DNA of 64,000 bases from Taenia hydatigena (lineage: Eukaryota; Platyhelminthes; Cestoda; Cyclophyllidea; Taeniidae), in assembly GCA_036345935.2 (NCBI GenBank), contig JADWOT020001117.1:61001-125000 (forward strand). Reading direction: 5' to 3'. The notes beneath the pieces are model-generated. The model worked only from the letters and a program-made list of their open reading frames with translations, did no database searches and was not told the DNA's origin. The position numbers and the translations under genes are program-made. Position 1 is the first letter of the stretch. Every line of letters begins with the position of its first letter. Positions 2,717 to 54,989 of the stretch are shown here, piece by piece.

Positions 2717-3315
2717 TCCTTTTTCTACCTGTGATATTAACTTGATCCCTCTTCTTGTACAACATCTTTCGCTACTGTCCTTATGAGCCCTGTCTCTCTG
2801 CCAGAATATATTTCCTACAGCTTTGCACTCGTTCGCCATCTTTTTGTGTGGTTGTGATGTCGTTTGAGATGGTATTGTTATCAAAAATTGGCATTTTCCC
2901 TCATTTTATTTATGCAAGCTTAGTGCATAAAAATGACGTTCACGTCAAAACGAAGCTTTTGAATTCTCTAAGCTAAGCTGCTTTTTCCACTCCACTTGCT
3001 GTTACATCCTTTTTGACACGAGTGAGTGCTGTGACGGGCGGGCTTTACTTCTTCATCGGTGCTGAAACCGTGATGCATAGGGAAATGATATCAAAGTTTG
3101 ATTACCCATCACACTTGCCTCCAAAATGCTCTGCTCCGTGCTTCAAGTCATCCATAGGTACGAAAACGTATCCATGGCCTCGGGTTACACCCCTTCGATG
3201 ACAAGGCACTCCCTTCATTGCATCATGCTGCCACCAGAACGTTTTCGCTGGCGCTGCTGTTTAAGTCGCATGCTCATAACCTCGGTTACTTACTGTTCTA
3301 TGCTCCACACTCCAG
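2717..3315. other. Intergenic, CHMP6 to VPS36
   Basis: About 600 nt between two same-strand ESCRT genes. I see no further gene, no clear polyadenylation signal and no repeat copy. Short open frames here show no family resemblance. Confidence 0.5.
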
Positions 3316-30108: not shown

Positions 30109-31925
30109 GTGTCACAATCAACCATCTGTCCTATCCATCCATCAATCAATCATGCGACTAATTTATGCAAGAAAGCCTCGATTACCTCGCAATTTTTGTA
30201 CAACCGAAGCGTCATGTAGCTTTGATTTGTTTGTCTGTCTGTGTGAATGTTGATTTGCTAGTACGTTTGAAGTGTTGATCCATTGTAGGATGGAAGGGAG
30301 AAAGGATGTGGATCAACTAGTCTTCGTCTTGTCAAATAAAGTTCTGATGTGAAATCGGGACAAAGTTATTGAAGGTGTGGAAGTAACGCATGGCGTCGTG
30401 GTGCACCATGATTGAAGCAGGTCAGGAACTGTCTGAGCTCTTTGCTTTCGACAATTTGTGGAGCCGCGTGTGTTCGGATGTGTCCTGTTCCTACGGTGCT
30501 GTGCCAGAGGGGTGATGTTCACTATTTTGCAAGTTATGAAACGTTCTACAGCGCTCAGGAATGTGGGTGGAGGAGGAAGATTGGAAGCGGGACGCCCTTC
30601 TTTCCGAAGCAGCTTGCATGCGACTTCTGGCGCGTCGAGTTGGAAGTGGCTGGTCTGGAGGTTGTGACGAGTGTCGTATATGTTTACATGGAGGTGGCGC
30701 ACGCTGTGTGAATGATGGTCTCTTGGAGGTGTGGATTAGGTAACTCACTGGTGCAATGGTGAATGCACGTCGCCCTGGATACCCGCATTCTTTTTCGACC
30801 AAGTGATTTGAATTTAGCGGAATCAGGGAAGGGGTGGTGGCGCTTGTGCTGTGGGGCGGTGGCATCGCGACGCTGCGATGCGCTTCCTCTCGAGGTGTTA
30901 GTTGGCCGCGGCATTGACTTGTGAAATTGCCGGTGGGATGTTTGTCTGTGGCTTGGTTAGATGTGTATTGGTACACCGGTTTGGCAAAGTCTCGCTTCTC
31001 CCTTTCCATGGAAAGACTCCATTTCTCAGAGCGTCCAGTGCCTCGTCTAATCTGTCTGATCAACCTCGGGTACGTAAGGGCAGCAAATAAGGTAGATTAC
31101 CTCAGGTCGTATCCACCCTCGTGGGTCTGTGAACCTGCGGGCCTTACGATGCATGTTGTGCGTCACTCTTTTGGCATTCTCCCTTGGCTGAGGCGCTCAG
31201 CCAAAATTGCCACGACTCAGGGGCCACGATGGTCAGAATGTGGTCGATCAACCCGTTTCTACCTGTGAGTGGGCCTGACTGCCGGTTAGTCGAGGCATGA
31301 ATACCTCCATGCGGATATCCCAGTTTTCTGACGTGTATGAGTAGGCAGGGCTCACGGCGCGTGTGTACGTGGACAGTGGAAACGTTGACTTAACTGTCCC
31401 ATATTTGGCGTGTTCTGATTGGTCGAGGTCTTGAGCCATCTAATGTCTTCGTACATGACACTAGCCAATTGAAAGAGTCGAGTAAGAGGGCGCAGCTTTT
31501 GAACGGACCAACAATCGGCCGAGGGAAAAAAGGTGCACTTCTGGGTAATTTTTTCCTCGAGGTGTTCACCGTGGAATTTAAAAAGTTCCTCTGAAACTTG
31601 AGTTCACGACCGAGGCGACACTTCTAGAGATGCAGGGCGTAGCCCAAGCTGTCCAGTGCCGTTGCGAATGTCCAAGATGAGTGTCTCGTTTGATCCTTTC
31701 CACCAGTTAGTGTAAACAAAATATCATTCTTTGTGGCGGCAAAAACCTCTCAGTCGAAGCTCTGTTGTGATGGCAAACACAGGGATGTCAGGAGGAGTAA
31801 TTTTGGGGCTTCATTGTCAGTTTCCACTTCAATGAATGATGGAGGTTTTTGGCAGTCTGCAGATCATGCTGCTGGGCGTTGGACCTGTCGATCGATTTGC
31901 CGCCAACTGGTGTGTACTTCAAGCC
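30109..31925. other. Intergenic, carrier to CAP gene
   Basis: About 1.8 kb. Apart from the carrier's polyadenylation signal I see nothing supported. Overlapping open frames on both strands at 30410-31270 are likely chance products of GC-richer sequence. Confidence 0.45.
30335..30340 (+). other. Polyadenylation signal AATAAA for the carrier gene
   Basis: Canonical hexamer 227 nt after the glutamate carrier stop, followed by a GT-rich stretch (GTTCTGATGTG). Confidence 0.65.
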
Positions 31926-32648
31926 ATGCCACGGACTTTAAACTTCTCTAACAGCATGCTAATACTGCTGTGCCTTTCTCTCCTCCACGTAGTTGTATTT
32001 ATCGTCTCCCTCTCGGAGGCCATTTCAGCGGAGGAGCGAGAGATGATCACCTTTCTTCACGTCTCGGCCCGTATGAGCGTGGATCCACCTGCTGCCAACA
32101 TGCGCCCGCTGCTCTGGTCTACAGAATTGGAAAACCTCGCGCGAATATGGGCCAAAAAGTGCTCTTGGGACTTTCCAGACCCATCAATCTCGGAAGAGAA
32201 ATCGCTATTTTATGTGGGCATCAATGTCGCGATGATGTCTACCGAGAGGTTGCGCAATATGGAGGGGACTTTGCCTTCCATAGAAATTTTGTTTGATCTG
32301 TGGTACATCAACCAGATTTACTTTGATCACGAGTTGAACATCTGCAGAGGGGGCTATTGTGGCCAGTACAGACAGATTATTTGGGCCACTACGGAGTACC
32401 TGGGATGTGAGAGGGGTGTCTGTGATAAGGGCATAAAACGTCACGTGCTTGTCTGTTGTTACTATCCCTCGGGGAACGATTCGGAAAGCCGACCTTACGA
32501 ACGATTGAAGGATGAGGATGATTTTCCACTGGATGAGGAACCGTGGATTATGCTACCGTTGGAGATCAGTGAAGTCTCTGGTTCTCCATTAGCCACTGTA
32601 CCTTCTGTGTTTGTTTTTATGTGCCTCCCGGCCTTTCTGGTCATTTAA
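31926..32648 (+). CDS. CAP-domain (venom-allergen-like) protein, tail-anchored or GPI type
   Basis: A 240-residue single-exon CAP (SCP/TAPS) family protein; such proteins are abundant at helminth host interfaces. The start at 31926 (MPRTLNFSNSMLILL) or Met ten residues on precedes a signal-like segment LILLCLSLLHVVVFIVSLSEA. CAP hallmarks follow: EREMITFLHVSARMSVDPPA, WSTELENLARIWAKKCSW, CGQYRQIIWATTEYLGCERG and HVLVCCYYPSGN. Of the four residues that form the usual metal-binding cavity, only the first His (FLHVSAR) remains; the GEN, WxxE and GHYTQ positions read GIN, LWYINQ and GQYRQ. The C-terminus is acidic and then hydrophobic (VPSVFVFMCLPAFLVI) with no basic tail, which suggests a GPI anchor. 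No intron was needed, unusual beside its neighbours. An in-frame Met at 31836 gives a longer but less likely start. Confidence 0.85.
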   Translation: MPRTLNFSNSMLILLCLSLLHVVVFIVSLSEAISAEEREMITFLHVSARMSVDPPAANMRPLLWSTELENLARIWAKKCSWDFPDPSISEEKSLFYVGINVAMMSTERLRNMEGTLPSIEILFDLWYINQIYFDHELNICRGGYCGQYRQIIWATTEYLGCERGVCDKGIKRHVLVCCYYPSGNDSESRPYERLKDEDDFPLDEEPWIMLPLEISEVSGSPLATVPSVFVFMCLPAFLVI

Positions 32649-36515: not shown

Positions 36516-39500
36516 ATGCCGAAGCTAGAACTAAGCTTTCTACTCCTTCTCGCATGGCCATTCCTTGGCGTAGGGCAACCATCCACAATGGATTGCTATA
36601 CGCAGAGTGGACCGCCTTACAATGGAACTTTGAATCATACGGCAGCAGGTGAACCCTGTCTACCGTGGAGTGAATTCACCCACCTACATCTGCGCAGCAG
36701 TTGGAATGCCTCGGTGTTGAAGGAGCAGTCAAACTACTGTCGCAACCCGGATGATGATCCACGAGGTCCGTGGTGTATGGTTACGAGAGCAAAGTATGGA
36801 ACGTGTGCAGTTCCACATTGTGGTGAGTTTGAAGCCTTGCTCATGTCGCTCCAAGTTTAAATCATTTTTATCTAGGAAAAGTAGTGAGGGTAGCATATCT
36901 GCTGGCTTATTTTGCAAGAATAGCGAGACTTTGATAGCGTCAAAGCCAGTTTAGCCATTCGTGGCACCCAACCGGAAGGCTGAAAGCGGAGCTACGGTGA
37001 CTCCAATCCATCATTGACCATTAAAACCATTTCGCATCCATTCAGTTATCCAACTAGTTACTCCCATATTCTTCCATCTACCCATTTTTCTGTCCAGTCG
37101 ATCCTATGATCAGTCACCTATTAGATAATATCACACCTCAGACCAACTCCTCACCCGTAGATTCCCAACTTTTGCATTTTGTGTCTTCCACTTTTTCTCA
37201 CGACCACCTGACTTTAAACTGTGTTTCGCTAGTGCGCTTAAAAAAACAAAGTAGAAGTTTTCTTTTTAGCGACGCCACGTAGGTGCTTCTGACACTTTTA
37301 GGACCCACAAACGATGCTTACCTATACGGAGATGAATTTTCCCTTGTTCGTGCCCCTATCTTAAGCTGTACATTTAAGCGGCTTTGTTGAAGGCAGCACA
37401 CGATTTTTGCATAAGTTTATGCAAACTGCGGTTTCATTAGATCTGCATGTAGAAAAAATGTGGTGCCAAAGTTTTTTGCCACTTGCCATGTGAGATAAAT
37501 GTAGCGATCATTTCACGTCGCCGTCACACGAAATTATTTCATTTTTCGCCTCTGTTAATGCAAAGAACCAATCACCGGCAGCTAAGTGCCTTGCGTGCGT
37601 AAACTTTGTTCCTAGTCTATTTAATCGTCACTGAACGAATTTATTTGTTCCAAAAGAAGCATCGACTTTCCATTCTTTGGATATCCTGGACGCGGGCATT
37701 CTGTGGGAGTTTGTTACGGACAAGCAAGGAATGCATTCAAAATAAGCCGCGCGCTGACGCTACAGTACCGTAGGTAACTTGCTTGAAGTGTTCCACACGA
37801 CCAAAAGCTCTGGGGTTTTTAATAGAGAACTTTGACAATTTTCACAGACACATTCTGTTTCGAATAGACGCCCACCAATACCAAGGCTTAGGGTCTTGAA
37901 TAACAGCATCCGACATCGACAGGATTACAACTTATGCCATGGCCATCGTCCATCGGATGTCGCTTGTTTGATACCATCACGATAACGTCTTTCCATTTGA
38001 TTTGCTCAATGTCAGAGCTTGTTTTAAGCTAACCATGCGCGTCCATTTTGTTTACAACGAGGAACTTGTTTGTTTTTAATTTCTTGCTGAAAACATTGAT
38101 AACTGACTTTTACTTGTTAAGGATAAATTATCAATCTGTTTACACTCAATTAGATAAACAGAGTGTGTGACCTTGAAAGTGCAATGGGCTAATCAACCAC
38201 TGGGAACTTTTGCGCAAATTGTTTGAATCTTGTAATCGAAAAGCCCGGTCGGATGTGAAGTACTTTTTTTTAATCATTAAGCCCAATTTAGCGTTTCGCA
38301 GAGACGTACAGGATAAAATGATCTCGACTGGTGTTCGTTTGCACATGGAATAACAGAGAACTCGTATGTCTGATGGTGTCAGATGAAATCGCGAAATATG
38401 GGGTTCCTGCATGGTTAAATATGCAACTGATATGCAGCCTCACCGTTATTAAGCATCACTTTCTAAGCTAGTCTGTTCTGGTGTGGCTGCACGTGCAGGT
38501 TATCGAATCTTTCCAGAAGCTACAGAGGAGGGACCGCGAGGCTGTAGGTGCGACTATATGGAAAAGCTGGTTTAGTTGTGCAGTGTAACAATTAATGGGT
38601 CATAGATTAAGTTTTAATTCTTTATATTTGCTCTAGAACATCTTGTTGATTGCTACGAGGGCGTTGGTGAGGATTATCTCGGAGATGCCAGTGTTACTGA
38701 GGGTGGTCAGGTGAGCAACTTTAATAAAGCATTAAATTTTGGAGGAATTTCTTTCTCAATTTGCCTTTTAAATGCATGCAGTCTTGTTATCTGTGCAGAT
38801 TATGTGCTTTTTTCAGCTAACCTTACGACCCTGACAAGCAGGTTGGGTTATGGTGTCAGAGTTAAGGCTTAGGATAAAACTTAGGTCATTGGCATTCGGA
38901 TTTATATATGTTTATCGATGCATTGTATTCAAACTTCTCCGTTAATATGCTCATCTCCATGCTCACAGTTCTGATATTAAATGGCGGTAAAGCCCTGTAG
39001 ATAGGACCCGGTTTTAAATTTGAAACTGCATTTTCTCAAATTTGAAATGGTAAGGTGCTTTTCGGCGGGTCACTGGATATGATTAGGATGATGATGACTG
39101 CATCAAGGTTTGCTATTACCTCTCGCGGTGTATGGTGAAGGAAAGAGAACTTCAAATATGGCTCTCTATTCAACCCGATAGTTTGAAAGATGAATATCTC
39201 TTTTTAAATAGCCAGTATTATTTAATTGGTGAAAAGTAGGCATTATTTTTTAAAGCCACCTCAGCTGCAAATAATAAGACATTCACTGTATTTAGGATGC
39301 AAGGAAGAGAGGTAGGAAGGGAATGCCGCCATGTCTGCATTCTTTATGTTCTTCAGGTTCATATTTTTCCAAGTTATGATTGTAAATGCTTTGATACCAA
39401 ATAATCGCATTGTCCGCTCCCACAGGTATGTGTCCCATGGGCTGACGTGATTCGCGCAAGTGTCATGAAGCCAGGAACTCCGCATCTAGTGATTGTGAAT

Positions 39501-39699
39501 TACACATCACCAACCAATCGAACTCCAGTCTCCAGCTTTGATTCGAGTGTTGCCAACTTTCGAAGCTGTCGCAACCCTGAGGGTCGAATGGCCAAGCCGT
39601 GGTGCTACGTGTCCGCAGTTTCACACACGGGCAACTCGATGAACTTGTACCTCACCACGGTGGGGTATCGCAAAGCGCCATGTAAAGTTGACATGTGTG
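36516..39699 (+). other. Two kringle domains of the giant gene
   Basis: Kringle 1 is in the first exon: six cysteines in order in DCYTQSG, GEPCLPW, NYCRNPDDDPRGPWCMV, GTCAVPHC, with the typical YNGTLNHTAAG. Kringle 2 is split over 38637-38710 and 39426-39699: DCYEGVGEDYLG, QVCVPW, RSCRNPEGRMAKPWCYV, APCKVDMC. Both start and end at phase-1 introns. The intron between the two kringles is 1.8 kb and contains ATCC-like units near 37020-37110. No protease domain follows, so this is not a plasminogen-type enzyme. Confidence 0.88.
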
Positions 39700-42600
39700 G
39701 TAGGTCAATTGGTTCTTTGGATGCTCCCCATCAATCCCCAACGATGGCTACACCTTCAGTAATCTTATTAAGCTCCACCTTGTGCCCATATATACTAACA
39801 TTACAGTGATTTATAAGGCTTGAATTCGGACAACCGTTCGCATCAGCATTCGAATGCCTACCAGCACATACAAAGTTTACAAGGTCGCAGATAAAAGTGC
39901 AGTTTTTGTTTTCCTCTCGCTCTGCAGTTTTAGCCAAGGCCGATGTGTGATGGTGGTGGTGGTGTTGGTCCGAGAATATACTCTTCACTTGGCTAACTGA
40001 AGCGGTTTGTTTGCATTGTTTACATCTGGTAGACGCCTCTGGGTGTATACAATCCTTCCAAAACACGGCTGACAGGTTACAGGAAAGTGTCAGGGAACCC
40101 AATTTTTTTATCCGTACAAAGTTTTACATCTCGCCTTATTGACACTTCTTCCGACTCTGGCTTGGATTTTGAAGGTGGAGTGTTTAGTGAATAAATAGGA
40201 ACGAATAACGCTACAGAAATCCTTAACAGTAGGCAACAGCACACCAGTGGAGCCTGGATAGCCATTAAAGATGGCTTAAGTTAATACCGCTCTGTTGCAC
40301 AGCTCCCCATATCTTGGCTTCTAGAGCCCTTCTGGGTCGGTATTTAGCTCATATCGAGTGCTTGCATGTTAACCTTTGACTTCCATCGAGGATTCCTTCA
40401 GATGACGCATACCCACTTCTTTACCCATGTTCTTCTTTGAGATCACTCAAGCCACATGGGGCTGCCTCTGGATTTTGGTGATGAGTGTCCACCAGGCTTT
40501 CTGACCCAAGTTGGGAAGACCGCCTCCCCACAGGGCGAAATTTCCACGGTCTACTGTGTCCTCTCTGCTAAGGGGCTGAGAAATACAGAGAAGGGCCGTT
40601 TCAGGAGTTTCTGCATGTTCCTACTCAATCAGAACCGCGAGACCTGTCCTAAGGGTGAGTCGCAAATTTTAACCAGTCAGAAATCTGTGTTGGTGAAGAT
40701 TACAAGGGTACTGGCTGCATTCTTTCAGCTGGTTTTAAACCGCGGTGTATTGACTTCTAAATGAGTCAACTCCAATAGTTATGTTGCCTGCTGTTAAGAG
40801 AAAGGAACGTTGTCAGTATTTTCCACCTTCCTTCGATGTCTTAATTCCCCCCCCCCTCCCCCCCCATATTTAGGGGTTTCAGCTAAAGAATGTAAGATGC
40901 CGACTGCATCGCGCAAACGTTTATTAGTAAGGTATGCTTAAGGGAGGAGGAAAAGGAGTAGATTTTCCGTGTCGATTGCTTATTTGCTCCCTGTTCATTC
41001 TCAGGCTTCGATATGAAACGGACCTTTATGCGTACCAAACTGAAAGCCAAGGGCAAATTCAGCATGTTTCGTCAAGAGGGTTTCACATCTATTTGGCTCT
41101 CTCTTTGCTGCACCAACGGCTCCCATGCCGAACTTCGAACCAAGTTCCCACGATCCAGTGTGGCCTACAAAACCTCACACTCCCGGTCGAATCATCAGGC
41201 ACCGTGGATCCGTGGGGATTCTTATGCATCATTTCCACAATCCGCCGAGGACTCGATACTTAACGACAGCCCAACACCGCCGGTGTCCAGAGACACACCG
41301 CTTTTCTTCTCCATCGAACGCTGCCCGCCGGTGAATGGAACACGTCGAAAGATCTTCACTATGGGCACGTATAGGCCGTCCAATCTAACGGCTACGCTTT
41401 TGGACTATGGCTATTACACCTTGATGTGCGCGTACTATGAGGATGACGAAATACCACCGATTACGTCGTCTATCCAACCCAACAAAAGTAAGTTTCTTGT
41501 CTCTGTTTTTTCCCCCAATTCTCAATTGATTAGTCTGGCATTACGCCACATCGGGACATATATTTTGACTGACTAATGAATTCGCGGTGGTTTCTACCTC
41601 GCGTACCTCGTTGATCTTGACCTTGAAGTGTGTATTAGTGACTGCATTTTCTCCCTTCTAGCGCTCATTCCAAGCATTCTGGTGGAGGGCAAGACCTGTC
41701 CACCCCACTTCTCACCGGCCCCCAATACCAAGGCCCATCATATGTTCTACTACCTTCGTGCGGCTTTCATCCTCTGTAAACCTGAAGGCATCTATCGTCA
41801 TGACGCCATTGATAAGATATTGCCCGATGGAAATCAATGTTTTATCTCTCACACTCCCCGTGAGGTGAAACGTGCTGAGGGAATTATTGAAGAGGGTCCT
41901 GATGGTTCGTCGGATGATGAGGAGCAGGATGAAGAAGACGGTTATGGAACTCGATCGAAGAGGTATCACTGCCCCTCAGGTATGTTTATTTATTTTATAG
42001 CTTTTGGCATTTGTCAAAGTGTTTTTGGTTGATGATTTAAACTAGGGATGAGATGTTTAATAAAGAGCAGAAATCGGACTGTTTCGCGGACACATCCCTT
42101 TCACCCGAAAGGGTCTTGTTTATTTACTACACGAATAAGTGGACATACGACCAATCACAGTGTTCGCTGCGGATGTCACATACGTGTGACGTGCAGATTT
42201 ATTTGTGTGAACCTGAATATCGCATTTATCAGTTGCGGTTCTCGGTGGGTCTCTTCCGATTGGAACGATGAGGCACTTTAATTATTGTCAGCAGACAGAA
42301 TTTAGCTATCATGTACGCCGGTAATGCCGGTGTCCATGTTGTGATCTTGAACTCTGACCACTTGAGTCTAGGACCGGCGCGGATTCGATTCGACTGACTT
42401 AAACCGCAGTATTACCGATGAAATAACACCATCTTCCAGTCTAGGCATCATTAACTGGATATTAGTGTCTCATAGGTTTCGATACGACTGAATTGCGTTG
42501 GGCTGGCGGTAATGCATCAGCTCACGGCTTTGAATCGGTGACTATGTACTTCTGCTGCCGTCGGGGTGCCACCCCAACTATCGGTGGATCACCAATTGCA

Positions 42601-45600
42601 TCATCATCATCAGCCGACAAGAGCGATGGCTCCAGCGGTCCTCCTCCCACCTTCCCACTACCCTTCTACCTCCGATCCGTGCCAACTTTCGCCATTTTAA
42701 TCCTTGGCGGAAGCTGTCCGGATTACTCGGATCAAGGCACCAAACTGACTGCTGACTTTGTAAGTGTGTCAGTGTGTGGAAGTGGATATTCACGATAGAC
42801 CAACAATCACCTTTTGAATGTTTGAAGTTCTTCTTGCGGGGTAGATGCGTGGTGGTTTGTTTGATTCACTTTCGTTCAAGGACGAGTCATTCGGTCAATG
42901 GTTTTGGAGTCGATGCATGACAACACTACCACCATCGATGTCTGGAATGGGCTGACTCCAAAACTCGTCCCCGAATGGCGTTGTCGCAATAACAGCTTAT
43001 AAAAGTTATAGAGCTAGAAGCCTACTTTCACAAAGCAGGTCAATAATTGAAGGCTCCGACGGGGACGCTGATTCGTTCCCGATCCTTTGGTTAACGTCAA
43101 TTCCAAGGCGAAGGGGAGGAATATGCAGTGATTGTTCAAGCCGCCATCCTCCGGATGCTTTCCGACTAAGCATTAATGTCTCCCAACTTGCAAATCTTTT
43201 TTGTTTTTTTAGAGACCAACAATGCAATCTGAGTCGTACTTGACCCTCGAGTTGATTGGTCAAAACAATCCAGTCGATTTTGTGGAATCTATGAGTGGAG
43301 TACGAGGAGTCTTAGCCCTCTGCAAGTATTCTCAGCCTCGTGGTATGTTGTCTCCTCCCTTCCCGAGCAGTTTTTACCCACTCATGCACTAAGAATAGGG
43401 ATAGGACAGTGCTCTTGTGAAGGAGGGCATACATCCCTACTTATTGAATGGTTCATTTTCATGGATAGAACACCCATATTCACCTCTGATTAAGCGTAGG
43501 AAACTTCTTAACTCGCTCTCTTGCTTGACACCGCGACGTGTTAAGCCTAGCATATTTTCCATCAGCGTCACGTACGTGCGACGTCGCGATTTACCTTGCA
43601 GACAGCAAGCGACGTCTGATTGTGATTTTCGAGCCAGTCTTTGAGGAGCGACATTTATTTTTTTTTCGCGCCAGGCCCACAGTTTCCTCTTTCTCTCTCT
43701 ACCACAGATGAAATTGGAATTCTGTCACCGCAAGGCTTCTGTCAAGGGGTCGGTGAACGTCGCGTTCCAACCGTTCACACCTTACACGATGCTGGGACCA
43801 CCTGTGCTGTCAATGTCACTAATGTCGTCTTTCCTGCTGGCTCTTATTGTTTCTACAGAACTGCGAAAGTCTGTCCACCAGGTAATTAAGCGGCCATTTT
43901 TTAACTTGTTACCATTCCTATCCATAGACTCACATCCTTCCAAACTATAACCTTTCTACTCCTGTATGAATTGTTTACAAGATCCGAGGTACTAAAGGAG
44001 AGGAAAGAGTAATGACACAACAAGACATTTAAGACAGTCAGACGCCGGCGTCACATATATGCGGCAAATTCTCCTTCTCGGTTTATGTTGTCCGCTTGCA
44101 TTCACTCATTCCGGAAGTAAATGACTTGAATGAGATGTGCTTACTAGCAGCGAGAATGAGTGCTTCAAATCATAGAAGCAGTTCGTCATACTCATTCATC
44201 TATTTCCTTGCGGTCTGTAGGTCTTCCTGAACTGCAAACCAGTGTTTTCGAAGGTCTGGTTCGTTCCTTCCTTCTCCAGACAATGTTCCTTCCCTCACCA
44301 GCCTTGAACGATGAGAAGGAGCTCTGCTGTCAGTCGGAGGAGTCGCTGGGTGCCATTGAATTGCCACTCAATATAACAGCACCTTTTGCATTGCCGGCAC
44401 TGCAGGCGTCCTGTCAGAGCTTTGTCGGATTCACGGTGGATCAGACAAAGGGATTCTGCGAGTATGCACCCATCACCGGTTAGTTACAGCATTCTAAATG
44501 ATTGGTGGCTTCGGTTAATGGAGGGTTGTTTATTATTTACGTCCAACCATCTGTAAAGACGGCGCCTACACTTCCTTTCCGAGACTTGTCTTATGATCAA
44601 ATAATATCGTGACCAGACGTTTACGACGGATTCATGGTGCTAGATGATGCGGTCGATGGTCTATAGGTATGTAAGCTACACTGGTTTGTGGAAACTTGGT
44701 TTATAATTCAGCATGGGAGCGGTTGGGCCGCAAAATTGACCTGTGAAATGGTTGACACTTTTATCTGTGCAATGTAGCTGGTGGGGAAAGAGTCATTCTC
44801 TCATAGGCTCCTTTATTTTTTCCACTGTTATGGATATAGCTAGGCAGCTGGAGCGCTCTGCCTCCATTGCATCTGTGAAATCATCAAATTGTGGGTGGAG
44901 AATTGGGATTTCTAGACAATTCACTGATTACTAGTACTTAGTGGACGACGGAAGGCCACTCCTCCATAATTGAGGCGGTGAAATAGTCTCTTAGCCATCC
45001 CCTTTTCAAGGTTCCAGCATTCATATCAACTCTCAAAGCTAACAGGTCTTGCAGATAGAACTCATTGTAAAATTCACTCATGTAGCCCAATACTACTCAC
45101 TGCATTTGTGAGTAGCTTCTCAATTTCCTCCTCCCATTTTTTGATGTCATCTTTCCTTCTCACCTCTAGAACAACCAGAGTCAATTGTGGTCTGGCCTCG
45201 TCGCGTTTTTCCTAGCAATCTTCGTGGCAAAACCGAAATCGTTCTCACCTGCAGTGACAACTGGGCTCTCAACTCGGGTAAGCCTTGACGACATGGATCT
45301 ACTGGATTTTGCCAGCTATTTCTGGCAGTTCAGCCTAAAATTTGAGGTTCCGCATTGGTTGTGTAGGCAAAGACAGCCCAAAGGCCAGCTTTCTTCCTCA
45401 TTTTTTAGTTTCTCGAGCTCGCAACTTCATGATGCGCCATCGAAGATTGTGGTTGATTCCAACGCCGATGCAGGACTTCTCATCCAACGATGCAATGGAG
45501 CTTTGCTATAGCGAAGTGCGTGGGACCGAGGTGCCTACAAGAACGGAGTCCGGATATTTGAACTATTGTCTCGTAGCCTTTGCAACATGTCCGAATGAAG

Positions 45601-48600
45601 GTGAGTTGAATGGATAAGTACCGCCACAGCCTATTCATTCATCCATCGGTCCGCCCTTGGGGTTAGCAAAGTTGGAAACATCACATTTTTCTTGCTCTGC
45701 AGATTTTGAGGTGGTCTCCGCATTCCCCTACCAGCAATACATCGTCTGCTGTGTCAAACAGCCTTCACACCTTCAGAACACACCGACGACATTTCAACGG
45801 GTATCAACATGGCCAGAGCACGTGCGCTCCATTGTCACTCTGGGTCGTAAAAGTCCAGGCGACGAGGAGAAGGTTAAGGACTTAGCCGGTCCCACGGAAC
45901 TTCATCGCGATCTGAAGCAACCCGAAACGGATGAAGGATGTCCCGAATTTAAGCAGTACTCACTCATTCGACGATTCGTCAAGATGTGGAGACCCAAACG
46001 ATATAAGACACTGATTGCAAGACCCTCGATTCATCACCTTTTGAATGTCACTACAGGCTTAAATGACAGTAAGGAGGCGTTCGCTAAGAGAACGGGACTA
46101 TGGTTGCAGGATGGTCTGCTGCATGCCATCTTCTGTGAATACCAGACGAATAGGCCGGCAGAACCGAACACTGGTGTTTGTAAGTCTTGCAGTGGGGCGA
46201 ATAAAACGGCTTTAACAGTGAAGTGCATGTACTCGACATGCTCAGTAACGGTGTCACATATATGTGACGCTTGTGCTTTCAAGGTCTAGAGACGCATTAT
46301 TAAGTGGGATTATGAACGGCTTTTGTTTTGTGCCTTATTAGCCTGGCCAATTGATAACTACGCCATCCCGCAGTCAGTAACCGGATGTCCGCCGGACTTC
46401 ACTTCAACCACCTTCATCCACCTCCAAGGTCGAAATGGCTTCCACTATTCACAGGTGCGTAGATCTCATTGCTATAGCCGTTGAGATGGTACCCTTCATC
46501 AAACGCTAAAATCGGTCAGCACTTATGACGCAATCGGTTTCTCGATGTGTCATCTTTTGTTGCCTCTTCAGCCCATTCATCTGGCAGGCGACTTCATTGC
46601 ACACTCCCGCGCGGTAAAATTGAGCTACTGTCACCGAGAAATGGACCCCTCACCATCTCACTGGAACAAGAAACACACCACTTCTCTACCACCGGGACAT
46701 TACTGCGTTCTCCTCGTCGGTAGACGATGTCCAGCCGGTAAGACTCTCTCCGTAGTGTCCTGAATGTTCCGTAAAGTTCAAATATGCTATTACCGGGCTG
46801 TAAGTAGGTTTGAGAGAACCACATTGAAGAGCTGGAAGACCCACCAGCAGAAATAAGCGTCATTCTTGGCGTCTCTTGCGATCAATCATTGGTGTCAGCT
46901 ATTATTGACACAGAATGTGTAACTGTCCAATTGTAGCCCTACTGAAAGGTTCACACAGTCAAATTACGGTCTTTCATTTTATCGTCTCTTCAGGATTTAC
47001 TGCTGGAAGCCTCTCCGTGTTTGAGGGTCTCCTCAAGCCCAACGAGACCGAAGAAGGCGTGGATCCGGCATCGATAGACATCTCAGACCTACCGATGGGT
47101 GCTGACTCATCGACACACAACGCGCCACGCATATTCCGTGATAAAGTGGAAAAAGGTGACACCGGTTTGACATTTGATCGTGTCACCTACATGTTCTGCT
47201 GTCGTGCAGACTCACCTTCTGCATTAATTCCTATCACGGGCTTCCCGAATGACACCGGACCGTTCTATCTATACAGGTAGGCTGTCAATCAGTGAACATG
47301 TGCCTAAGCTCTTAACGTTTAGGGCGTACTAATCTACCTTATTTACTCCTGATGAAGGTTGAAAAGCATGGAGGTTGGGAGGGGAGGGGCTAGAAGACCT
47401 TTGCCAGTAATCCTGTATTAGCTGAGAGAAAGCAAAAACGACACGATTAACCTATCTCACTTTTTCCCGACAGGGCTGGCGAAACGTGTCAGGAGATAGC
47501 TGGACTGCGTGCAACTGAGGAGTATATATGCATGGATGCACCAGAGTTTCTTGTAGGCACTGTCCACTCCTATGCCTTCCAGATGGAGGTTGTGGACAAG
47601 ACGTACCACATTGAAGGCTTCACGCCCACCCTCTCCATGTCTACTGACCATTGTAATGTGAAGATAAACCTTTGCTACTACGAGTCAAGTAAGTGAAATA
47701 AACTTTGGTTTTTCTTCTTTCATTTGGGACGGATAATAATTCTCAAATCATACTTTTGCCATCCCTTTCAGCCATCCCTGAGCCTGAGCCAACGTTAGAA
47801 GGTAAGTACTTCATTTACTTGGTAAAACACGTGCTACTTATATTAGTTAAGTAAAACACGAATTTATTCTAGTGGAGCAGAATAATGGCACAGCTTGGCC
47901 AGCGGGTTCGTACTCGCTTCTCACGACAATTCGAGAGGATGGCACTCTCGCCTGTCCTCCAGGATTCAATTTAGCCATCCGCTACAACATTCGACCGGAT
48001 GTGGTTGCCAATACTTTCTTCCGTCCGATGTCATTCGCCGAGTACTTTACGCAGAAGCCATCAGCTACTGAAGAGGTCTTTGGTCTTACCAATGAGACAT
48101 CAATGCCAACGTTACATACGTGCGAGCGCAATGCGAGTGATGTGCCCGAGGCGTACAACCTTACGGCCTTCCCCGACTGGCCGCCTGGCAATTACTGCGT
48201 CCTCATGGACTTACACACGAGGACCTGCCCACAGGGTAACTACTTACTGATTTCAGTAGCATGCGCTAGGAAAGTGGGTTCATTCAATGGCTTTTCTGTC
48301 ACTGAATGAACTGAGTTATAAGACTGTCAATAGCGTTGACCGTAGCTAGGTGCACACTCATGAAAAATACGTGTTCCTTTGACAGGACTGCACCGTTTCA
48401 CGCGCCAGTTGGCTGAACTGTGTTGTCACACGGCAAGCAGTGTTCCTTCTCTACCGGTGAAACTACCCTTTATTGGCGACTTCTTCCTTATGGGAGCTTT
48501 TGACGAGCCAGAGCTTGCCTGTTTGCCTATTGATAATACGCACGTAAGTTATCAGGATCCAAATATGTTAGAATACATCTTCATCGATCTACAGGCTATT

Positions 48601-51600
48601 TCAACTGGTTGATATTTGTCATCAGCTTTTGCGCTACTGAAATGCATCAGCAGTACATAGGCGAATTCGATGAGCAGTTATGTCGAATCTATGCTTAGTT
48701 TTGATCATCAATTCATTAACAACTGAAATTACTTTCTTTTACAGGTCGAAAAATACGTTATTCTGCTGTTTTCTGCAGTGGATCCTCACATTCACAGCTT
48801 ATGCCACTATTTGCCGCTTGAATGGCTCAAAACCCGCCGAAGCTGGCCTCCTGGTGACTACCTTCTGCCCATTGGAAAACGCGGTCAACCCATTCACGCT
48901 CTCAGTGTGAACGATTCTGACCTCTCAACTCCGATGCCTAAATTTGCCTGTCCCGCTGGCTTTCATCGTATCCTTCACGAATACTCCACTCACGAGGAGG
49001 AATTTGATACAGAAAGTGGTGCAGAATCGGTTTCGGGCTCCACGGTGATGCTGCACTTCTGCCAGCATAATCACTTCAGTAATGAATCAGCTAATGGAAC
49101 AGTTGTCTCCTGGCCTAAGGGCGACTACTGTGTCATTGTGAATGGTGCAATCTGTCCACCTGAAATGCGTGAGTTTTTAAGTGAAAAGCGTTTTATTTCT
49201 CCTTTGCTCTAAAAGTTGGGTCGAGAGGAATGGTTAAGAGGAAGATATGTATTGCTGCCAGTGGAATGCAAGGAGAAGTAGACCACCACTTGGTTGCTGT
49301 TGATCAAGACGACAGGCAGTAGCGGCAGCGGATCCATGAAATAACGCGTAGCCAGGGAACACGGTTTGCGCATTTCAATGATATGGTTTCAGATAGGTCT
49401 GTCCGTTAAGACTTCCATCTCGCATCGGGTATTCATTTTGTTGACCACCCAAGATTGGACTACCGATACATGTACTGGAGGCAAGCCTTTTTGCGGTGAA
49501 TAGGGTAGTTTAAATGGTTAGGGCAGTCTGAGTGCCAAGACAGTTTAGTAGAGTTGACTGATTCGCTGAGATGAGGAGGACCTTCTGTTGGCACTTGACT
49601 GGAATGCTATGATCCGTGTAAAAGCAGTCGAAACTCGGATCGACCGGTATTTCTTCATCTGTGATGAAGTGAGACGCCTCGTTCTACAACGGTTTACCCA
49701 TACTTCTAAGACTCCGGTACCGAAGGCCCTTTCTAGGTGCTGGGCAAGCGCTGAGACAAGTGAGTGCGCCAGGAAATAGTGGGGAATCATGACATTATTT
49801 CTCACCTCTCCTAAGCTGTTCTCACTCTATTCAAGTTTTGGTTTGTCTTGATCGTTCTTGTCTATTTGCGTCGCCTGATCTACTTATTTCTTCTAGTAGT
49901 ATGTTCACTCCTCTCATTTTAGACGCATCTAACGAGCTGGTAATGCGAATACCGCGCAGCTACTTGCGCGCAATTCACAACGCCACCGACTATGGCGACA
50001 TTATTGAGGGACAGTCAGTCGAAATGTCCAGTAACTCGCGCTCGGTCACCTACTACTCAGTTTGCTGTCGAGAGGACAAACAGCTTTTGGTTGATTTACC
50101 CGGCTTTTCTGGGGGCATGTATCTACCCGCTGGATCCAGCCTATGCTCCAGTATCCCTGGCACCTTTATCGAACATGAACAGGTGTGCAAGTGTGATGCT
50201 ACTTAAATGCTATCAGCATCCACTGGCTGAGTAGTCTTATGGGAACTAAGGCTTGTTTTGGTGCGGCACTTCTTAAGTAGCCCTGGAACATACACATTTT
50301 GAGCCCTGTGATGAAGGTGAAAGATAAATGACTTAACTGAAGGTTGAACTTTGCCTCTTTGCGATTGTGATTTCTGCTACGCTTTTCATGAGCATGTGGG
50401 GTGTGGTGCTACCTGAATGCTACAGTTTGGAGGCTTCTAGAGCATAAAGCAAATCGTTCTGGTCTGTAGAAGTCCAACATTATCACTTGCGTGCAGACAG
50501 AAAGGGGTTTTGGTACCGGGGCATTACATTTTATTTGTTTGGCTTTAAAAAAGGTATTTCGTGGCAAAATTGCGTGTGAAGCAATTGGGTGGAGAAGTCA
50601 GCCACCGTCTTGGGTTTACGAGTGGAGGACCGGGGGGTTGAAGTCACTGCGATGATTTTAAGAAAATGGCATCTCTATCTTTGAGAGCGATTTATATGGG
50701 ATTACTGAAGCAAACTTCATTTAGATCCTGTGTGATAGCTGCTTCTGCCTAAATGCTATAAGTTGCTAATCATGCCTTTAAATTTGTAAATCAGATAACG
50801 ACGTATCTGGATCCCACTCTATTGGATCCTTACGTAGTTGAGGGAGGTGATGACGAGGAAAGCAGCAAAAGACGACAACGGCAGCGTCAGCGGTGGATGC
50901 CACCACCCTTCGAAGAGCCAGGAGTAATGACATTGTGCTACTACCACCAAATGCAGAAGATCTTAACCTCGAATTCCTCCACCGAAGACGGTGACATGCT
51001 GCATGAATTGCTTGAACCGGGAAGCACTGCGCTCTCGTTGTGGTTGGCCGGTGAGTAGTGGTTTGGCTCGCTTTATTTGGGTTAGTAATGGAAGAGATTT
51101 CGCTCCAGCGTCTCAAGTCGTAAATGCACACCCAGACATCTAAAATTGAGTAGTTTAGGTCTGGAGGTCAGAACGATCCGGACTGTTCTAAAATTCCTGC
51201 TACCTGAACCGTAATTTCAGCTCAGTTTACGGGCATCAGCATCTCGAGCTACATGTTTTATACGTTCTTTTAACGAAACCATTGGCAACACGTTTATTAT
51301 TTTATCATCTGTGTGGCTTATTTGATCACCCCCGTCAAATTACTAGGCGAATGTGGATGTGCCGAGAACGCCATTTGTCGACCATTCAAACGGTTCTCGT
51401 GCAAATGTAAGAAGGGTTACTTTGGTGACGGCGTTCGCGTCTGTCGACAGATCACTCCTCTCACCGGTCCTTGCGCCAACCTCTGCCATGTGCATGCTGA
51501 GTGCAAGACACGCAGGAAGCACTCCTTCATTAGCAGAACCGTGAGTTGAGAATCTAAACTACTTATTTGCTCGCCTATATTCCCTCCGTAATGCTAAAAT

Positions 51601-54600
51601 GCGGGTCCTTTGCCACCGATGCGAAACTCCAAAAGCCCCTTGAAGTTAAAAAGGTTTGAGATGCTCTGGGTTCAGTCAGACGATTCGGTCCCCAAGCTAA
51701 AACACGCCTTGAACAGGCAGTAAAACAAACTTTGAATTGTAGTAACATGCATCTATTTGAAGCGATATGGGTTCTTAGAATGTGGTCAACTACAAATTCT
51801 CAACTGCTCGATTACAGGATTGTCTCACTGAGCAAACTTTACATGAACGAAAGAATTCGCGTTTATTTAGCATAGCATTAACAAATTGAGTATTTCGTCC
51901 TTTTTCCTAACCAAACTTTTTTTAGAAGGAGGAAACGGCATGCGTCTGTAAACCGGGCTTCGTTGGAGACGGCTTCAGCTGCCTTCCTCAGTGCAGTGCA
52001 CACACCTGTCAACCCTTCAGTCGATGCAAAATTAGGAAAGGAGGTACGTCCTGATTGTCACCTTGATCATGTGATTCAATGCTTGCCACAGAGCCTGGGG
52101 TCTTTCCTATCGAAAAGACGTACATTAATAAGTTGCATGTCTGCAGGTAGAGAGGAGGGACATAAGTACGGAATGTGGGATGAATATTGCTTTTATTTGC
52201 TATGCAATCATCACATTTAATTTGTTCGTGATACACAGACTATTAACCCTAACAACGCCACAAAGTGACCCAACTGAAGCTACAAGAGCTGCTAGCTTGG
52301 CTAGAGTTAAATGGAACTCTCATTGAGGATATTGCGTTGGTATTTTTCGGACTAGCCTAAATTCGAAAGTTTTTTTTTAATAAAAATGAGTTAATTATAA
52401 CCCATTATAATTATCTGATTTACCATAGTCCTCAATTAAATCTTTAAAAGGCCACCAAAGACAAAGATAATCACCTAGTGCTTGTAATCTTCCTTCTCGT
52501 CGTAGAAAGCTTTAATATTATTGCATAGGAAGACTGAAAGGCTAAGTATCGCCCCAAGACTACGCAAAAAAGCCCGAACTCAAAACCACTTGATTAAATT
52601 TACGGATAGAGAATGTGATGAATTATCATTGGTTAAGTTTTTTTCTAGGCCCTGCGAGTAAACTGTTTTTGTTGCCACCGAATGATCTTTTACAGCTAGA
52701 AAAATCATGAAGCCAATTTTAGAAAACTGAAGCAATAATCAGCTGCTCGTAACTTATTGAACCAGCGAGGGGGGCGATTCGTTTTTGCTCGTACCTACTT
52801 AGGAGTGTCACCTGGTTAATTTAAACAAATCACGCTTGGAATGACTTCTTGTAAATTGACATTTATTTTATTTAAATAGAGCCTTTTTTGTCTACAAATT
52901 AGCGTCACATTAAACTTGATTTAAAAGTCAATTTTTTTGCAATATTAACAAGTGGAAGGACACGATGTGTTATATTTGATAAAGAAAATGCCATATGAAG
53001 TGTTTTAACGAAACTACCACCAATTGTTCCTAGCTCACCACCGATAAACGAAATTGACAGTAAGATTTATTAGGACATTTTCTTTTCTTTTTATAGTTCC
53101 CACTTGTGTTTGTGTCCCCGGAACAATTGAAGATGGCGAGAAGTGTCACTTTGACATCTACTCGAGTCTTCAAGCAGAGAAGGACCTGCCACAGTACATG
53201 TTACAGCACCTTAGCTGTTTCAGTGATCCTGTCTTCAAATCTCTGGTTTTGCAACAACCAAAGAGGTTCTTCATTCTCTTTGCACCACCACAGGTATGTG
53301 ATTCACTTTATTCATTTCCACCTGTCCGGTCTGCTTCTAGGGCGCTTTTTTCGCAGTTCAGCCATGTTTAGAAGATCTCTCCTTACTCTTGGTTCGTTCC
53401 AAATAAGTGGTGGTATGCTTTTGCAGTAGTTTTAAATGCACTATTAAGCACACGAGTCTGGGCATAGCCTAATATTAATGGAAGGTCGAGAGTCATCCTC
53501 CTTTTTTAATGAAATGAAAGGGAAAAAGAGGTGGCTAAGACTAGTTCTCAGTGTTTCTTCTCCGAGTTGGATCTACATTCCTCAATGAGCACTGCTGGAG
53601 AGTGCTAAACCTAAATAAATCAATCCACCGCTTAACCCTTTCTTGCTTGTAATTGCCACGATTGTCTTTTTGATTCTTTTTTTTCCGTGCAGCTGCTGAA
53701 AACATGCGACGAAATCTCCTCCCATATTGTTATGCTGAATAGTGAAGGAGAATACCGCAACTTCCTCGAAGCACCGATCTCTCACCTCACCAGTCTCAAC
53801 GGAAGCCTTATTACGGTTAACACTACGGTAAGTGATCAGAAAGTAACGGGAGTAAGTGAGGCTGATCTTTGTAGTACTGTCTAGCGAGGCTATGGAAAAG
53901 TTCCTTGAGTTGGGAGACTACAATCATTAGTGATGGTCCATGTGGAAGAGCAGAAGGGTTAATTTGGATTAATAGGCCGTCCCAAAGATGTCAGCTCACT
54001 GCTGTTCTGCATTCCTCTATGGTGCCCTGCACTATCTTACTGCTTTCCGGAATCGCCATATCATCAATTGTAGGTGGGTTGACCTCGGAGAAAACGTGGA
54101 TCTTATCCAATTTTCGGCTGGCTTAAGTTAACTAGGCTGTGCGGATCTGGTGATGAAGGTCCAAGTGGGAATGCATTAAGTTCAGCCCAGTCCTCTCTCC
54201 ACAGCCATAAAGAATTAAAGTTAAAGAATAGTGCGCCAGGGCTGGTTAGAAGATGCTGCCTCATTGCGAACCCTCAAATCTTCTCCGTTTTCGCTGCCAT
54301 CTGCAAGTTAGGGACGACATTTAGGAATTAAAGGTAGGGAAGAAACAGATGTGGATTGAAAGTAGAATGGAGGAAAAGGCTAGCTTAATCGGCAATTCAT
54401 ATGCCCTGTTTTTTAATAGATGGTATAACCTATAGATTGCCTCCATTATCTTTCTACCTAGGAGGTATTCCGTGTGAACGACGCGGAGGTTCGTGAGAAA
54501 CCTATTCTCTTCACGAATGGCCGAATATACTATACCAGTGCATCCTTGAAGTACATTCCAGTAAGTTGAAAGACGAATTTGGGTCCACAACTTTTCCAAA

Positions 54601-54989
54601 ACGGAAAGCATTCCATTTTTTGCCGTGTAGAGGCTGTAGAAGTTTACCACCTGAGGAGAACTTGTTTGGTTTAACCGACATGATTATTCTTCCAGGCACC
54701 GCATCCGACGGTGGTCAGCACAACAGCAATCGTGGTGTCACTTCTCATAATCCTCCTGATTCTGCTTATCGTTGGATTTTTCGTCCTCCGACATCGCAGA
54801 CCAGAACTCGTCATATTCAATCTTCGGCGACCAGTAGGCGAAAAATCTACCTACTTACACCATTTCAGTAGCATTAATATTTACGAATGAATCTTTTTTC
54901 AGCGCTTTCGTCCAATGGTGGAGAGACCGCAGGCAAGTTGGCGAGGTTCAAAAGGTGTCCTACTGGCCTCCGATGATGCCGAGGAGTGA
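36516..54989 (+). CDS. Giant kringle / tandem ApeC / EGF / FAS1 single-pass membrane protein
   Basis: Thirty exons: 36516-36822, 38637-38710, 39426-39699, 40442-40654, 41005-41487, 41662-41979, 42476-42759, 43213-43342, 43708-43881, 44221-44478, 45170-45277, 45409-45600, 45703-46179, 46342-46454, 46572-46737, 46994-47276, 47474-47688, 47772-47801, 47873-48235, 48386-48543, 48745-49168, 49923-50182, 50795-51050, 51347-51540, 51926-52043, 53097-53293, 53693-53827, 54462-54560, 54696-54833, 54903-54989. All have GT-AG borders and keep one frame to 6528 nt (2175 residues). Order: signal peptide (1-20), two kringles (to 218), about seven ApeC-like modules (219-1853), EGF-like repeats (1854-1975), FAS1-like domain (about 1980-2101), membrane helix (2107-2132), 43-residue tail starting RHRR. 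Many NxS/T sites mark the ectodomain. A receptor or adhesion role is inferred from architecture; its ligand is unknown. Weakest points are exon 4's acceptor and possible missed small exons. Confidence 0.8.
40442..41487 (+). other. ApeC-like module 1
   Basis: Residues about 219-450 in two exons. Pattern: DECPPGFLTQ, an inner Cys strand, ETCPKGFD, SLCCTN, FFSIERCPPVNG and TLMCAYYE. This follows the ApeC order (CPxGF, CPxGF, FCCR, FYL-C, LCYYE), with several positions diverged. Confidence 0.6.
41662..43342 (+). other. ApeC-like module 2, with acidic insert and RSKR site
   Basis: Residues 451-694 in three exons: KTCPPHF, then a strongly acidic insert and RSKR at 548-551, YHCPSGF, VTMYFCCRR, LPFYLRS, GGSCPDYSD and LALCKY. 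RSKR fits the furin consensus R-x-K/R-R. Confidence 0.6.
42175..42190. repeat. Palindrome GTCAC-N6-GTGAC, exact arms
   Basis: GTCAC-ATACGT-GTGAC, in the 496-nt intron between exons 41662-41979 and 42476-42759 of the giant gene. Confidence 0.7.
43568..43583. repeat. Palindrome GTCAC-N6-GTGAC, one mismatch
   Basis: GTCAC-GTACGT-GCGAC, in the intron 43343-43707 of the giant gene. Confidence 0.6.
43708..44478 (+). other. ApeC-like module 3 (short)
   Basis: Residues about 695-838: SPQGFCQG, VVFPAGSYCFY, KVCPPGL, KELCCQSEES, LPLNITAPF, ASCQSFVGF and GFCEYAP. It is shorter than its neighbours and may be partly degenerate. Confidence 0.5.
44050..44065. repeat. Palindrome GTCAC-N6-GTGAC, degraded
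   Basis: GTCAC-ATATAT-GCGGC, in the intron 43882-44220 of the giant gene; two arm mismatches. Confidence 0.45.
45170..46179 (+). other. ApeC-like module 4
   Basis: Residues about 839-1097: exon 45170-45277 (VLTCSDNWALNSG), then DAMELCYSEVRG, YLNYCLVAFATCPNEG, QYIVCCVKQ, DEGCPEFKQY and HAIFCEYQTN. The CC and CEY positions fit the family; the middle is long and basic (KMWRPKRYK). Confidence 0.5.
46253..46268. repeat. Palindrome GTCAC-N6-GTGAC, perfect
   Basis: GTCACATATATGTGAC is perfectly self-complementary over 16 nt. It lies in the 162-nt intron 46180-46341 of the giant gene. Confidence 0.75.
46342..47688 (+). other. ApeC module 5 (best match)
   Basis: Residues about 1098-1356 in four exons. 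The strongest ApeC match in the gene: TGCPPDF, LSYCHRE, LPPGHYCVLLVGRRCPAGF, VTYMFCCRADS, GPFYLYRAGETCQEIAGL, RATEEYI and INLCYYES. This module anchors the family call for the others. Confidence 0.75.
47873..51050 (+). other. ApeC-like modules 6 and 7
   Basis: A 30-nt micro-exon (47772-47801, a PEPEP linker) precedes them. Module 6 (about 1367-1566): LACPPGFN, DWPPGNYCVLMDL, RTCPQGL, AELCCHTAS, LACLPID, HSLCHYL. Module 7 (about 1567-1853): SWPPGDYLLP, FACPAGF, VMLHFCQHN, SWPKGDYCVIVNGAICPP, SVCCRED, MYLPAGSS and VMTLCYYHQM. Module 7 contains a basic/Gln run KRRQRQRQRW. Each module begins with a W-P-x-G-x-Y strand. Confidence 0.6.
51347..53170 (+). other. EGF-like repeats of the giant gene
   Basis: Exon 51347-51540 encodes CGCAENAICRPF, SCKCKKGYFGDGVRVC and the start of a second repeat (CANLCHVHAEC). 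Exon 51926-52043 completes it (ACVCKPGFVGDGFSC) and opens a third (CSAHTCQPFSRC). Exon 53097- closes with TCVCVPGTIEDGEKC. The GYxGDG signature is that of EGF repeats beside FAS1 domains in stabilins. Confidence 0.75.
53160..54560 (+). other. FAS1 (fasciclin)-like domain of the giant gene
   Basis: Three exons (end of 53097-53293, 53693-53827, 54462-54560) read FFILFAPPQ, ISSHIVMLNSEGEYRNF, LNGSLITVNTT, EVFRVNDAEV and LFTNGRIYYTSASLKYIP. The order FAP...H-I...L-G...V-N-A-V...NG-I-Y...L-P is the FAS1 fold signature. It is shorter than a full FAS1 domain (about 120 residues). Confidence 0.65.

What the first reader, a model, noticed from the sequence alone, without database searches (positions are those of the whole stretch)
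36516..54989. A 2175-residue kringle-kringle-(ApeC)n-EGF-FAS1-TM surface protein, apparently undescribed
Seen directly: 30 GT-AG exons hold one frame and total exactly 6528 nt, with signal peptide, two six-Cys kringles, seven Cys-rich modules, EGF repeats, a FAS1-like domain and one membrane helix. From family knowledge: the module pattern W-P-x-G-x-Y-C, C-P-x-G-F, F-C-C-R, P-F-Y-L, C-Q-E, L-C-Y-Y-E is that of ApeC; module 5 is the clearest. ApeC proteins in lancelets have been tied to binding of bacterial wall components, and kringles and FAS1 domains are adhesion modules. Inference: this is a flatworm surface receptor for microbes, host matrix or self-adhesion. I know of no protein combining these four domain types.
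Basis: partly seen in the sequence, partly recalled or inferred. Interest (0 to 1): 0.92.

Follow-up and report, generated by a model that had tools for sequence, protein, structure and literature searches.

The report
Fluke and tapeworm ApeC-array surface protein
A very large, apparently membrane-anchored protein of a tapeworm, built from two kringles, seven divergent ApeC modules, EGF repeats and a FAS1 domain, has matching proteins in flukes and other tapeworms, where databases carry it under misleading names such as plasminogen, and its job is untested.

Summary
Thirty exons (36516-54989, +) give 6528 nt and 2175 aa. Pfam confirms two kringles, ApeC, a dedicated family 'ApeC_platyh' (PF24148) and EGF_3. 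FAS1 is below Pfam's cut-off, but its predicted structure matches solved FAS1 domains. All seven modules share an eight-cysteine register and a phase-1 intron just after the fourth cysteine, including the modules that the classic ApeC model misses. No DXED motif of typical ApeC domains is conserved in any module.

'Undescribed' is too strong. Three protein searches gave 18 relatives: 5 tapeworm, 12 fluke, 1 without organism. Databases call them 'plasminogen', 'hepatopoietin-A', 'nidogen-2' or 'kringle domain-containing'. No title in the ten paper-search listings, some capped, names this protein; the 2021 survey of ApeC proteins is not held. A limpet protein with ApeC and a kringle is in print.

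Best reading: a type I membrane adhesion or scavenger-like receptor with a disulphide-rich ectodomain and a short tail with shared residues. The ligand is unknown. Microbe binding is possible but not favoured. A plasminogen-like protease role is unsupported: the Pfam scan lists no protease domain.

The parts
36516..54989 (+). whole coding span, 30 exons, 6528 nt of CDS, 2175 aa
   Evidence: relatives align along the length
36516..36584 (+). signal peptide, residues 1-23 (hydrophobic core read by eye, no predictor run)
   Evidence: hydrophobic N-termini in several relatives, absent from the P0001 model
36585..36822 (+). kringle 1, residues 24-103, six cysteines
   Evidence: Pfam Kringle, best stretch 27-102; plasminogen and HGF kringles in PDB
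38637..39699 (+). kringle 2 with a long insert, residues 104-219, exons 2-3
   Evidence: Pfam Kringle 42.3 bits, cut-off 34.3
40442..41487 (+). module 1, exons 4-5, eight cysteines
   Evidence: cysteine register and intron position; no Pfam match
41662..43342 (+). module 2, exons 6-8, eight cysteines, acidic/serine-rich insert
   Evidence: cysteine register and intron position; weak profile link to module 7; no Pfam match
43708..44478 (+). module 3, exons 9-10
   Evidence: ApeC 24.1 bits, E 3.6e-5, below cut-off 26.5; profile match to module 5
45170..46179 (+). module 4, exons 11-13
   Evidence: Pfam ApeC_platyh 243.7 bits
46342..47688 (+). module 5, exons 14-17, with the GFHYSQPIHL stretch
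   Evidence: Pfam ApeC 67.9 bits
47772..47801 (+). 30-nt linker exon 18
   Evidence: similar residues in tapeworm relatives
47873..48825 (+). module 6, exons 19 to part of 21
   Evidence: ApeC 23.6 bits, E 5.4e-5, below cut-off; profile match to modules 5 and 7
48826..51050 (+). module 7, part of exon 21 to exon 23
   Evidence: Pfam ApeC 36.5 bits, cut-off 26.5
51347..53146 (+). EGF repeats, exons 24 to part of 26, 18 cysteines
   Evidence: Pfam EGF_3 49.2 bits, four stretches
53147..54560 (+). FAS1 domain, residues 1975-2101
   Evidence: structure model of the E. granulosus counterpart, pLDDT 83.7, pTM 0.78; Foldseek and VIA-align match solved FAS1 domains
54711..54785 (+). membrane helix, about residues 2107-2131
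   Evidence: the only segment with 19-residue mean hydropathy above 1.6
54786..54989 (+). cytoplasmic tail of about 44 residues with a shared C-terminal pattern
   Evidence: tail alignment of relatives

Best explanation
It is a type I single-pass surface receptor. After signal-peptide removal the chain threads out of the cell. About 2080 residues form a long, disulphide-rich ectodomain: kringles at the tip, seven ApeC modules in the middle, and EGF plus FAS1 next to the membrane. Shown by computation: the domains, their order, one hydrophobic segment placed for a membrane helix, and conservation across tapeworms and flukes. Inferred: membrane topology; that the ApeC array and kringle 1 bind glycans or glycoproteins of the worm's own surface or extracellular matrix; that EGF and FAS1 act as an adhesive stalk, as in stabilin- or periostin-like proteins; that the short tail docks a cytosolic partner. 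An endogenous adhesion or scavenger role is preferred to a microbe sensor because architecture, nearly all cysteines and, in tapeworms, kringle 1 are kept; no test for selection was run. The ligand, the tissue and the tail partner are unknown.
Against: No expression, localisation or binding data for this gene were found. Adhesion is argued from domain types. No genome-wide rate and no test for selection was computed, so conservation is only described. Kringle 1 is only 33-37% identical between the window and flukes. Mollusc and lancelet ApeC proteins that were tested bind peptidoglycan (PMC9585378, PMC8361754; passages), which favours the microbe rival.
Confidence: 0.5

Rival explanations
1. 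A pattern-recognition receptor: the ApeC array binds bacterial peptidoglycan at the gut or body surface and the tail signals or drives uptake.
For: Short ApeC proteins of lancelets and molluscs bind Lys-type peptidoglycan and agglutinate bacteria (PMC8361754, PMC9585378; passages). Lancelet ACP5 does so with all three DXED motifs changed. Tandem modules would give avidity (inference).
Against: No DXED position is shared by more than 2 of 18 rows. Modules 1, 2 and 4 do not match the classic ApeC profile. Tapeworms have no gut (general knowledge). No diversification was seen, but none was formally tested.
Confidence: 0.22
2. A host-interface protein: kringles and FAS1 on the worm surface bind host matrix or the host's fibrinolytic proteins.
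For: All 17 named relatives are in parasites. Kringle 1 keeps the two aspartates that, as recalled, form the anionic centre of lysine-binding kringles in 6 of 6 tapeworm sequences (window included) and in 4 of 9 fluke or fluke-like sequences.
Against: The recalled aromatic residue after the fourth kringle cysteine is Met in tapeworms and Val in flukes, and the following loop is two residues shorter than in plasminogen kringle 1. Kringle 2 keeps the aspartate pair in 0 of 15. Free-living flatworms may be poorly covered by the database, so 'parasite only' is not shown.
Confidence: 0.15
3. Two neighbouring genes joined by the gene model, the kringles being a separate gene.
For: No cDNA of this species; intron 1 is 1.8 kb; the Clonorchis model P0008 starts inside module 3 without kringles.
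Against: Kringles and ApeC modules lie in one protein in tapeworm and fluke relatives, and in P0012 on one 6466-nt contig. The kringle 2 / module 1 border is a phase-1 intron like seven of the other eight borders.
Confidence: 0.03
4. A plasminogen- or HGF-like protein, as the databases name it.
For: Best matches of the kringles in the PDB are plasminogen and HGF.
Against: No trypsin family is listed in the Pfam scan of the whole protein; kringles are 2 of about 14 domains.
Confidence: 0.01

Closest known systems
ApeC-containing proteins (ACPs), Pfam PF16977 and PF24148 ApeC_platyh
   Same: Modules 5 and 7 pass PF16977, module 4 passes PF24148; eight cysteines per module, ten in module 5; extracellular by inference.
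   Different: Seven modules in a row; no conserved DXED motifs; joined to kringles, EGF, FAS1 and a membrane segment. The binding assays I saw described are for short secreted forms.
Limpet P-vulgata_14 (PMC7333891) and an annelid apextrin-like EST with kringle and MACPF (PMC2762978)
   Same: Kringle in one protein with ApeC (limpet) or with an apextrin-like MACPF (annelid); passages seen.
   Different: They carry peptidase, CUB, sushi or MACPF domains; the passages report no ApeC array.
Stabilins, TGFBIp and periostin (FAS1 proteins)
   Same: FAS1 fold; stabilins, as recalled, also combine EGF, FAS1 and a membrane helix.
   Different: One FAS1 here, no Link domain listed in the Pfam scan, and kringles plus ApeC in front.
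Plasminogen / HGF / ROR kringles
   Same: Kringle sequence and cysteines.
   Different: No protease and no kinase domain listed.

Membership tests
ApeC domain | about 200 aa with eight conserved cysteines (PMC8361754) | tested here: met
   seven modules, six with 8 and one with 10 cysteines, in a fixed CC register
ApeC domain | three 'relatively conserved' DXED motifs (PMC8361754; also spelt DEXD there) | tested here: not met
   window: one, at residue 540 in an acidic insert of module 2. Among 18 aligned rows (window and 17 of 18 relatives) no DXED column is shared by more than two rows; one DEXD column, window 1527 in module 6, is shared by four tapeworm relatives, where the window reads DEPE. 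Published ACP5 has all three changed, so this marks a divergent type rather than excluding it
ApeC domain | Pfam profile score above cut-off | tested here: met
   modules 5 and 7 (PF16977) and 4 (PF24148) above cut-off; 3 and 6 just below; 1 and 2 no match. So met for 3 of 7 modules
ApeC domain (modules 1, 2, 4) | homology to the other modules by profile comparison | tested here: inconclusive
   hhalign: module 2 with 7 E 1.7e-5, module 1 with 5 E 8.2e-5, module 4 with none; a control, module 5 against itself reversed, reached 7.1e-5. Shared intron position in 7 of 7 supports homology
ApeC domain | peptidoglycan binding | not testable with these tools
   needs purified protein
Kringle | six cysteines and Pfam match | tested here: met
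Kringle, lysine-binding type | Asp-x-Asp anionic centre plus aromatic trough (recalled) | tested here: inconclusive
   Asp pair in kringle 1 of 6 of 6 tapeworm and 4 of 9 fluke or fluke-like sequences; aromatic position changed; kringle 2 0 of 15
FAS1 / fasciclin | Pfam PF02469 above cut-off | tested here: not met
   15.1 bits against 22; 2 of 10 relatives match, best E 0.0011, and DUF687 does as well (2 of 10, best E 0.0015)
FAS1 / fasciclin | FAS1 fold | tested here: met
EGF | EGF_3 match | tested here: met
   49.2 bits, cut-off 28.5
Plasminogen / tissue plasminogen activator | trypsin-like protease domain | tested here: not met
   none among the six families listed at E up to 10 for the whole protein
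Nidogen | NIDO and G2F domains (recalled) | tested here: not met
   none among the six families listed

The most novel reading that the evidence does not exclude
A receptor with a tandem array of seven motif-stripped ApeC modules arose at the root of the parasitic flatworms, perhaps with their new syncytial skin, and has been kept in fixed architecture across flukes and tapeworms. It would be an ApeC protein repurposed from microbe binding to holding together or sensing the parasite's own surface, in contrast to the rapid turnover reported for ApeC proteins between phyla.
Probability: 0.2. Interest if true: 0.75.

Novelty: new variant of a known kind. Interest (0 to 1): 0.45.

Why it matters
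Databases carry one conserved protein of important human and livestock parasites under at least four unrelated names. Recognising it as a single ApeC-array receptor gives one clear gene to localise and knock down. It also extends ApeC to long tandem arrays without the DXED motifs, which makes the role of those motifs testable.

Tried and rejected
Structure of module 5: the model came out at mean pLDDT 44.2, pTM 0.48, mostly strands. Sequence search of module 5 against the PDB at E up to 10 gave 0.

Profile comparison of modules: the six pairs among modules 3, 5, 6 and 7 have E from 5.2e-14 to 2.5e-4, five of them at 4.1e-6 or better. The weakest (3 with 7) and all links of module 1 are no better than the worst reversed control (module 5 against itself reversed, E 7.1e-5); module 2 with 7 (1.7e-5) is little better. 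The other 48 of 49 reversed comparisons were at E 0.013 or worse. Module 4 links to none. I therefore rest the homology of 1, 2 and 4 on the cysteine register, the intron position and Pfam's naming, not on profiles. The first try of this comparison failed on a format error.

DXED count: one search looked at the window and 8 of 18 relatives only; one search repeated it on 17 of 18 relatives and found one aligned DEXD column in module 6 of four tapeworm relatives, which I now report.

Search outside tapeworms and flukes: three protein searches, the last with a 12-sequence profile, returned none.

Literature: ten searches. I saw listings, several capped: 20 of 42 papers, 30 of 1844 (17), 20 of 215 (24), 5 of 16524 (52), 20 of 28 (56); all of 3, 3, 1, 0 and 2. 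Passages were seen of seven papers: PMC8361754, PMC9585378, PMC10855680, PMC7333891, PMC4284660, PMC2762978, PMC4795655. No listed title or abstract start was about this protein; papers beyond the caps were not seen. Li et al. 2021 (doi 10.1016/j.ympev.2020.107009), the survey of ApeC architectures, is not held and may well list this architecture.

Considered and rejected: fusion of two genes; plasminogen-like protease; nidogen.
Full report
The gene. Reading the region and rebuilding the splice chain gives 30 exons, 29 GT-AG introns, one open frame of 6528 nt and 2175 residues.

Seven modules of one kind. Between residues 219 and 1850 there are 58 cysteines and seven CC pairs, with 6, 6, 6, 6, 8 and 6 cysteines between successive pairs. 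In 200000 random placements of 58 cysteines, 641 had seven or more CC pairs and none had five or more gaps of six. In all seven modules a phase-1 intron lies three to five codons after the fourth cysteine; random placement of the same introns reached at most 3 of 7 in 200000 trials. Eight of nine domain borders carry a phase-1 intron; the border of modules 6 and 7 has none. Such borders are the classic mark of modules spread by exon shuffling and duplication (established knowledge). Profile comparison links 3, 5, 6 and 7, and is not decisive for 1, 2 and 4.

Departure from typical ApeC. The literature describes about 200 residues, eight cysteines and three DXED motifs (PMC8361754, passages). 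Cysteines are met. DXED is not: the window protein has one, in an acidic insert at residue 540; in 18 aligned rows no DXED column is shared by more than two, and a DEXD column in module 6 is shared by four tapeworm relatives but not by the window, E. granulosus or flukes. Lancelet ACP5 has all three changed and still binds bacteria and Lys-type peptidoglycan, so the loss alone says little about binding.

Relatives. Three protein searches returned 18 proteins: five tapeworm (Echinococcus granulosus 90% identity, Mesocestoides, Anoplocephala, Hymenolepis, Spirometra), twelve fluke (Schistosoma and other genera) and one unnamed. Their names include plasminogen, hepatopoietin-A, nidogen-2, tissue-type plasminogen activator and kringle domain-containing protein. 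Of the 17 aligned, 8 cover every part from kringle 1 to the membrane helix (P0001, P0002, P0003, P0005, P0006, P0011, P0012, P0013); the rest are partial or disrupted, for example P0008 without kringles and P0004 without FAS1. The unnamed P0012 has 2096 residues on a 6466-nt contig, from kringle 1 to the tail, which fits one uninterrupted transcript. 86 of 90 cysteine columns are kept in every aligned relative with a residue there; the exceptions are residues 27, 213, 218 and 1113. The 90% identity to E. granulosus suggests a taeniid tapeworm as the source of the window (inference).

Kringles. Kringle 1 is 82-99% identical to the window in five tapeworm relatives but 33-37% in flukes. It keeps the Asp-x-Asp pair in 6 of 6 tapeworm sequences and 4 of 9 fluke or fluke-like sequences; kringle 2 keeps it in 0 of 15. 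The role of this pair in lysine binding is recalled, not tested. The neighbouring aromatic residue is Met or Val and the loop is shorter than in plasminogen, so lysine binding is doubtful.

Tail. The last residues read ASWRGS-x-GVL-x-AS in the window and four of five tapeworm relatives (P0004 has no such tail), and R-(A/T)-x-W-x(6)-(I/V)LVEE in five of six other relatives with a tail, not in P0014. The shared core is W, then a hydrophobic-leucine pair five or six residues later, then acidic residues. The membrane helix itself is poorly conserved in sequence. A docking role is inferred.

Novelty. The architecture sits in public databases and Pfam has built a family that matches module 4, so the gene is not unknown. 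In the listings of ten paper searches, several of them capped, I saw no title about it. Limpet P-vulgata_14 already joins kringle and ApeC, and the key survey could not be read. I file it as a divergent, tandem-array variant of the ApeC-containing proteins.

Function. Domain order and the hydrophobic segment are computed; adhesion or scavenging of endogenous ligands is my preferred inference (0.5), a microbe receptor comes second (0.22), a host-interface role third (0.15).

Noticed in passing
window 31836-32648 (+): Open frame with a CAP/SCP domain (52 bits) and a hydrophobic C-terminus, upstream of the gene. The Anoplocephala relative P0003 carries a CAP domain at its N-terminus, 43.6% identical over 179 residues: probably a gene-model fusion, and a sign of conserved gene order.
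   Followed up: partly
window 3280-4469 (+): Vps36 / EAP30 (ESCRT-II) matches in two open frames.
   Followed up: no
window 17543-18894 (+): XK-related matches in two open frames, probably exons of one gene.
   Followed up: no
window 41662-41979, residues 548-551: A furin-like R-S-K-R site next to an acidic stretch in module 2; the basic residues are not kept in all relatives.
   Followed up: no
window 46342-46737: The stretch GFHYSQPIHL in module 5 is identical in 13 of 18 aligned rows and has one change in P0013; the other four rows are partial or disrupted there. It may be a functional site.
   Followed up: partly
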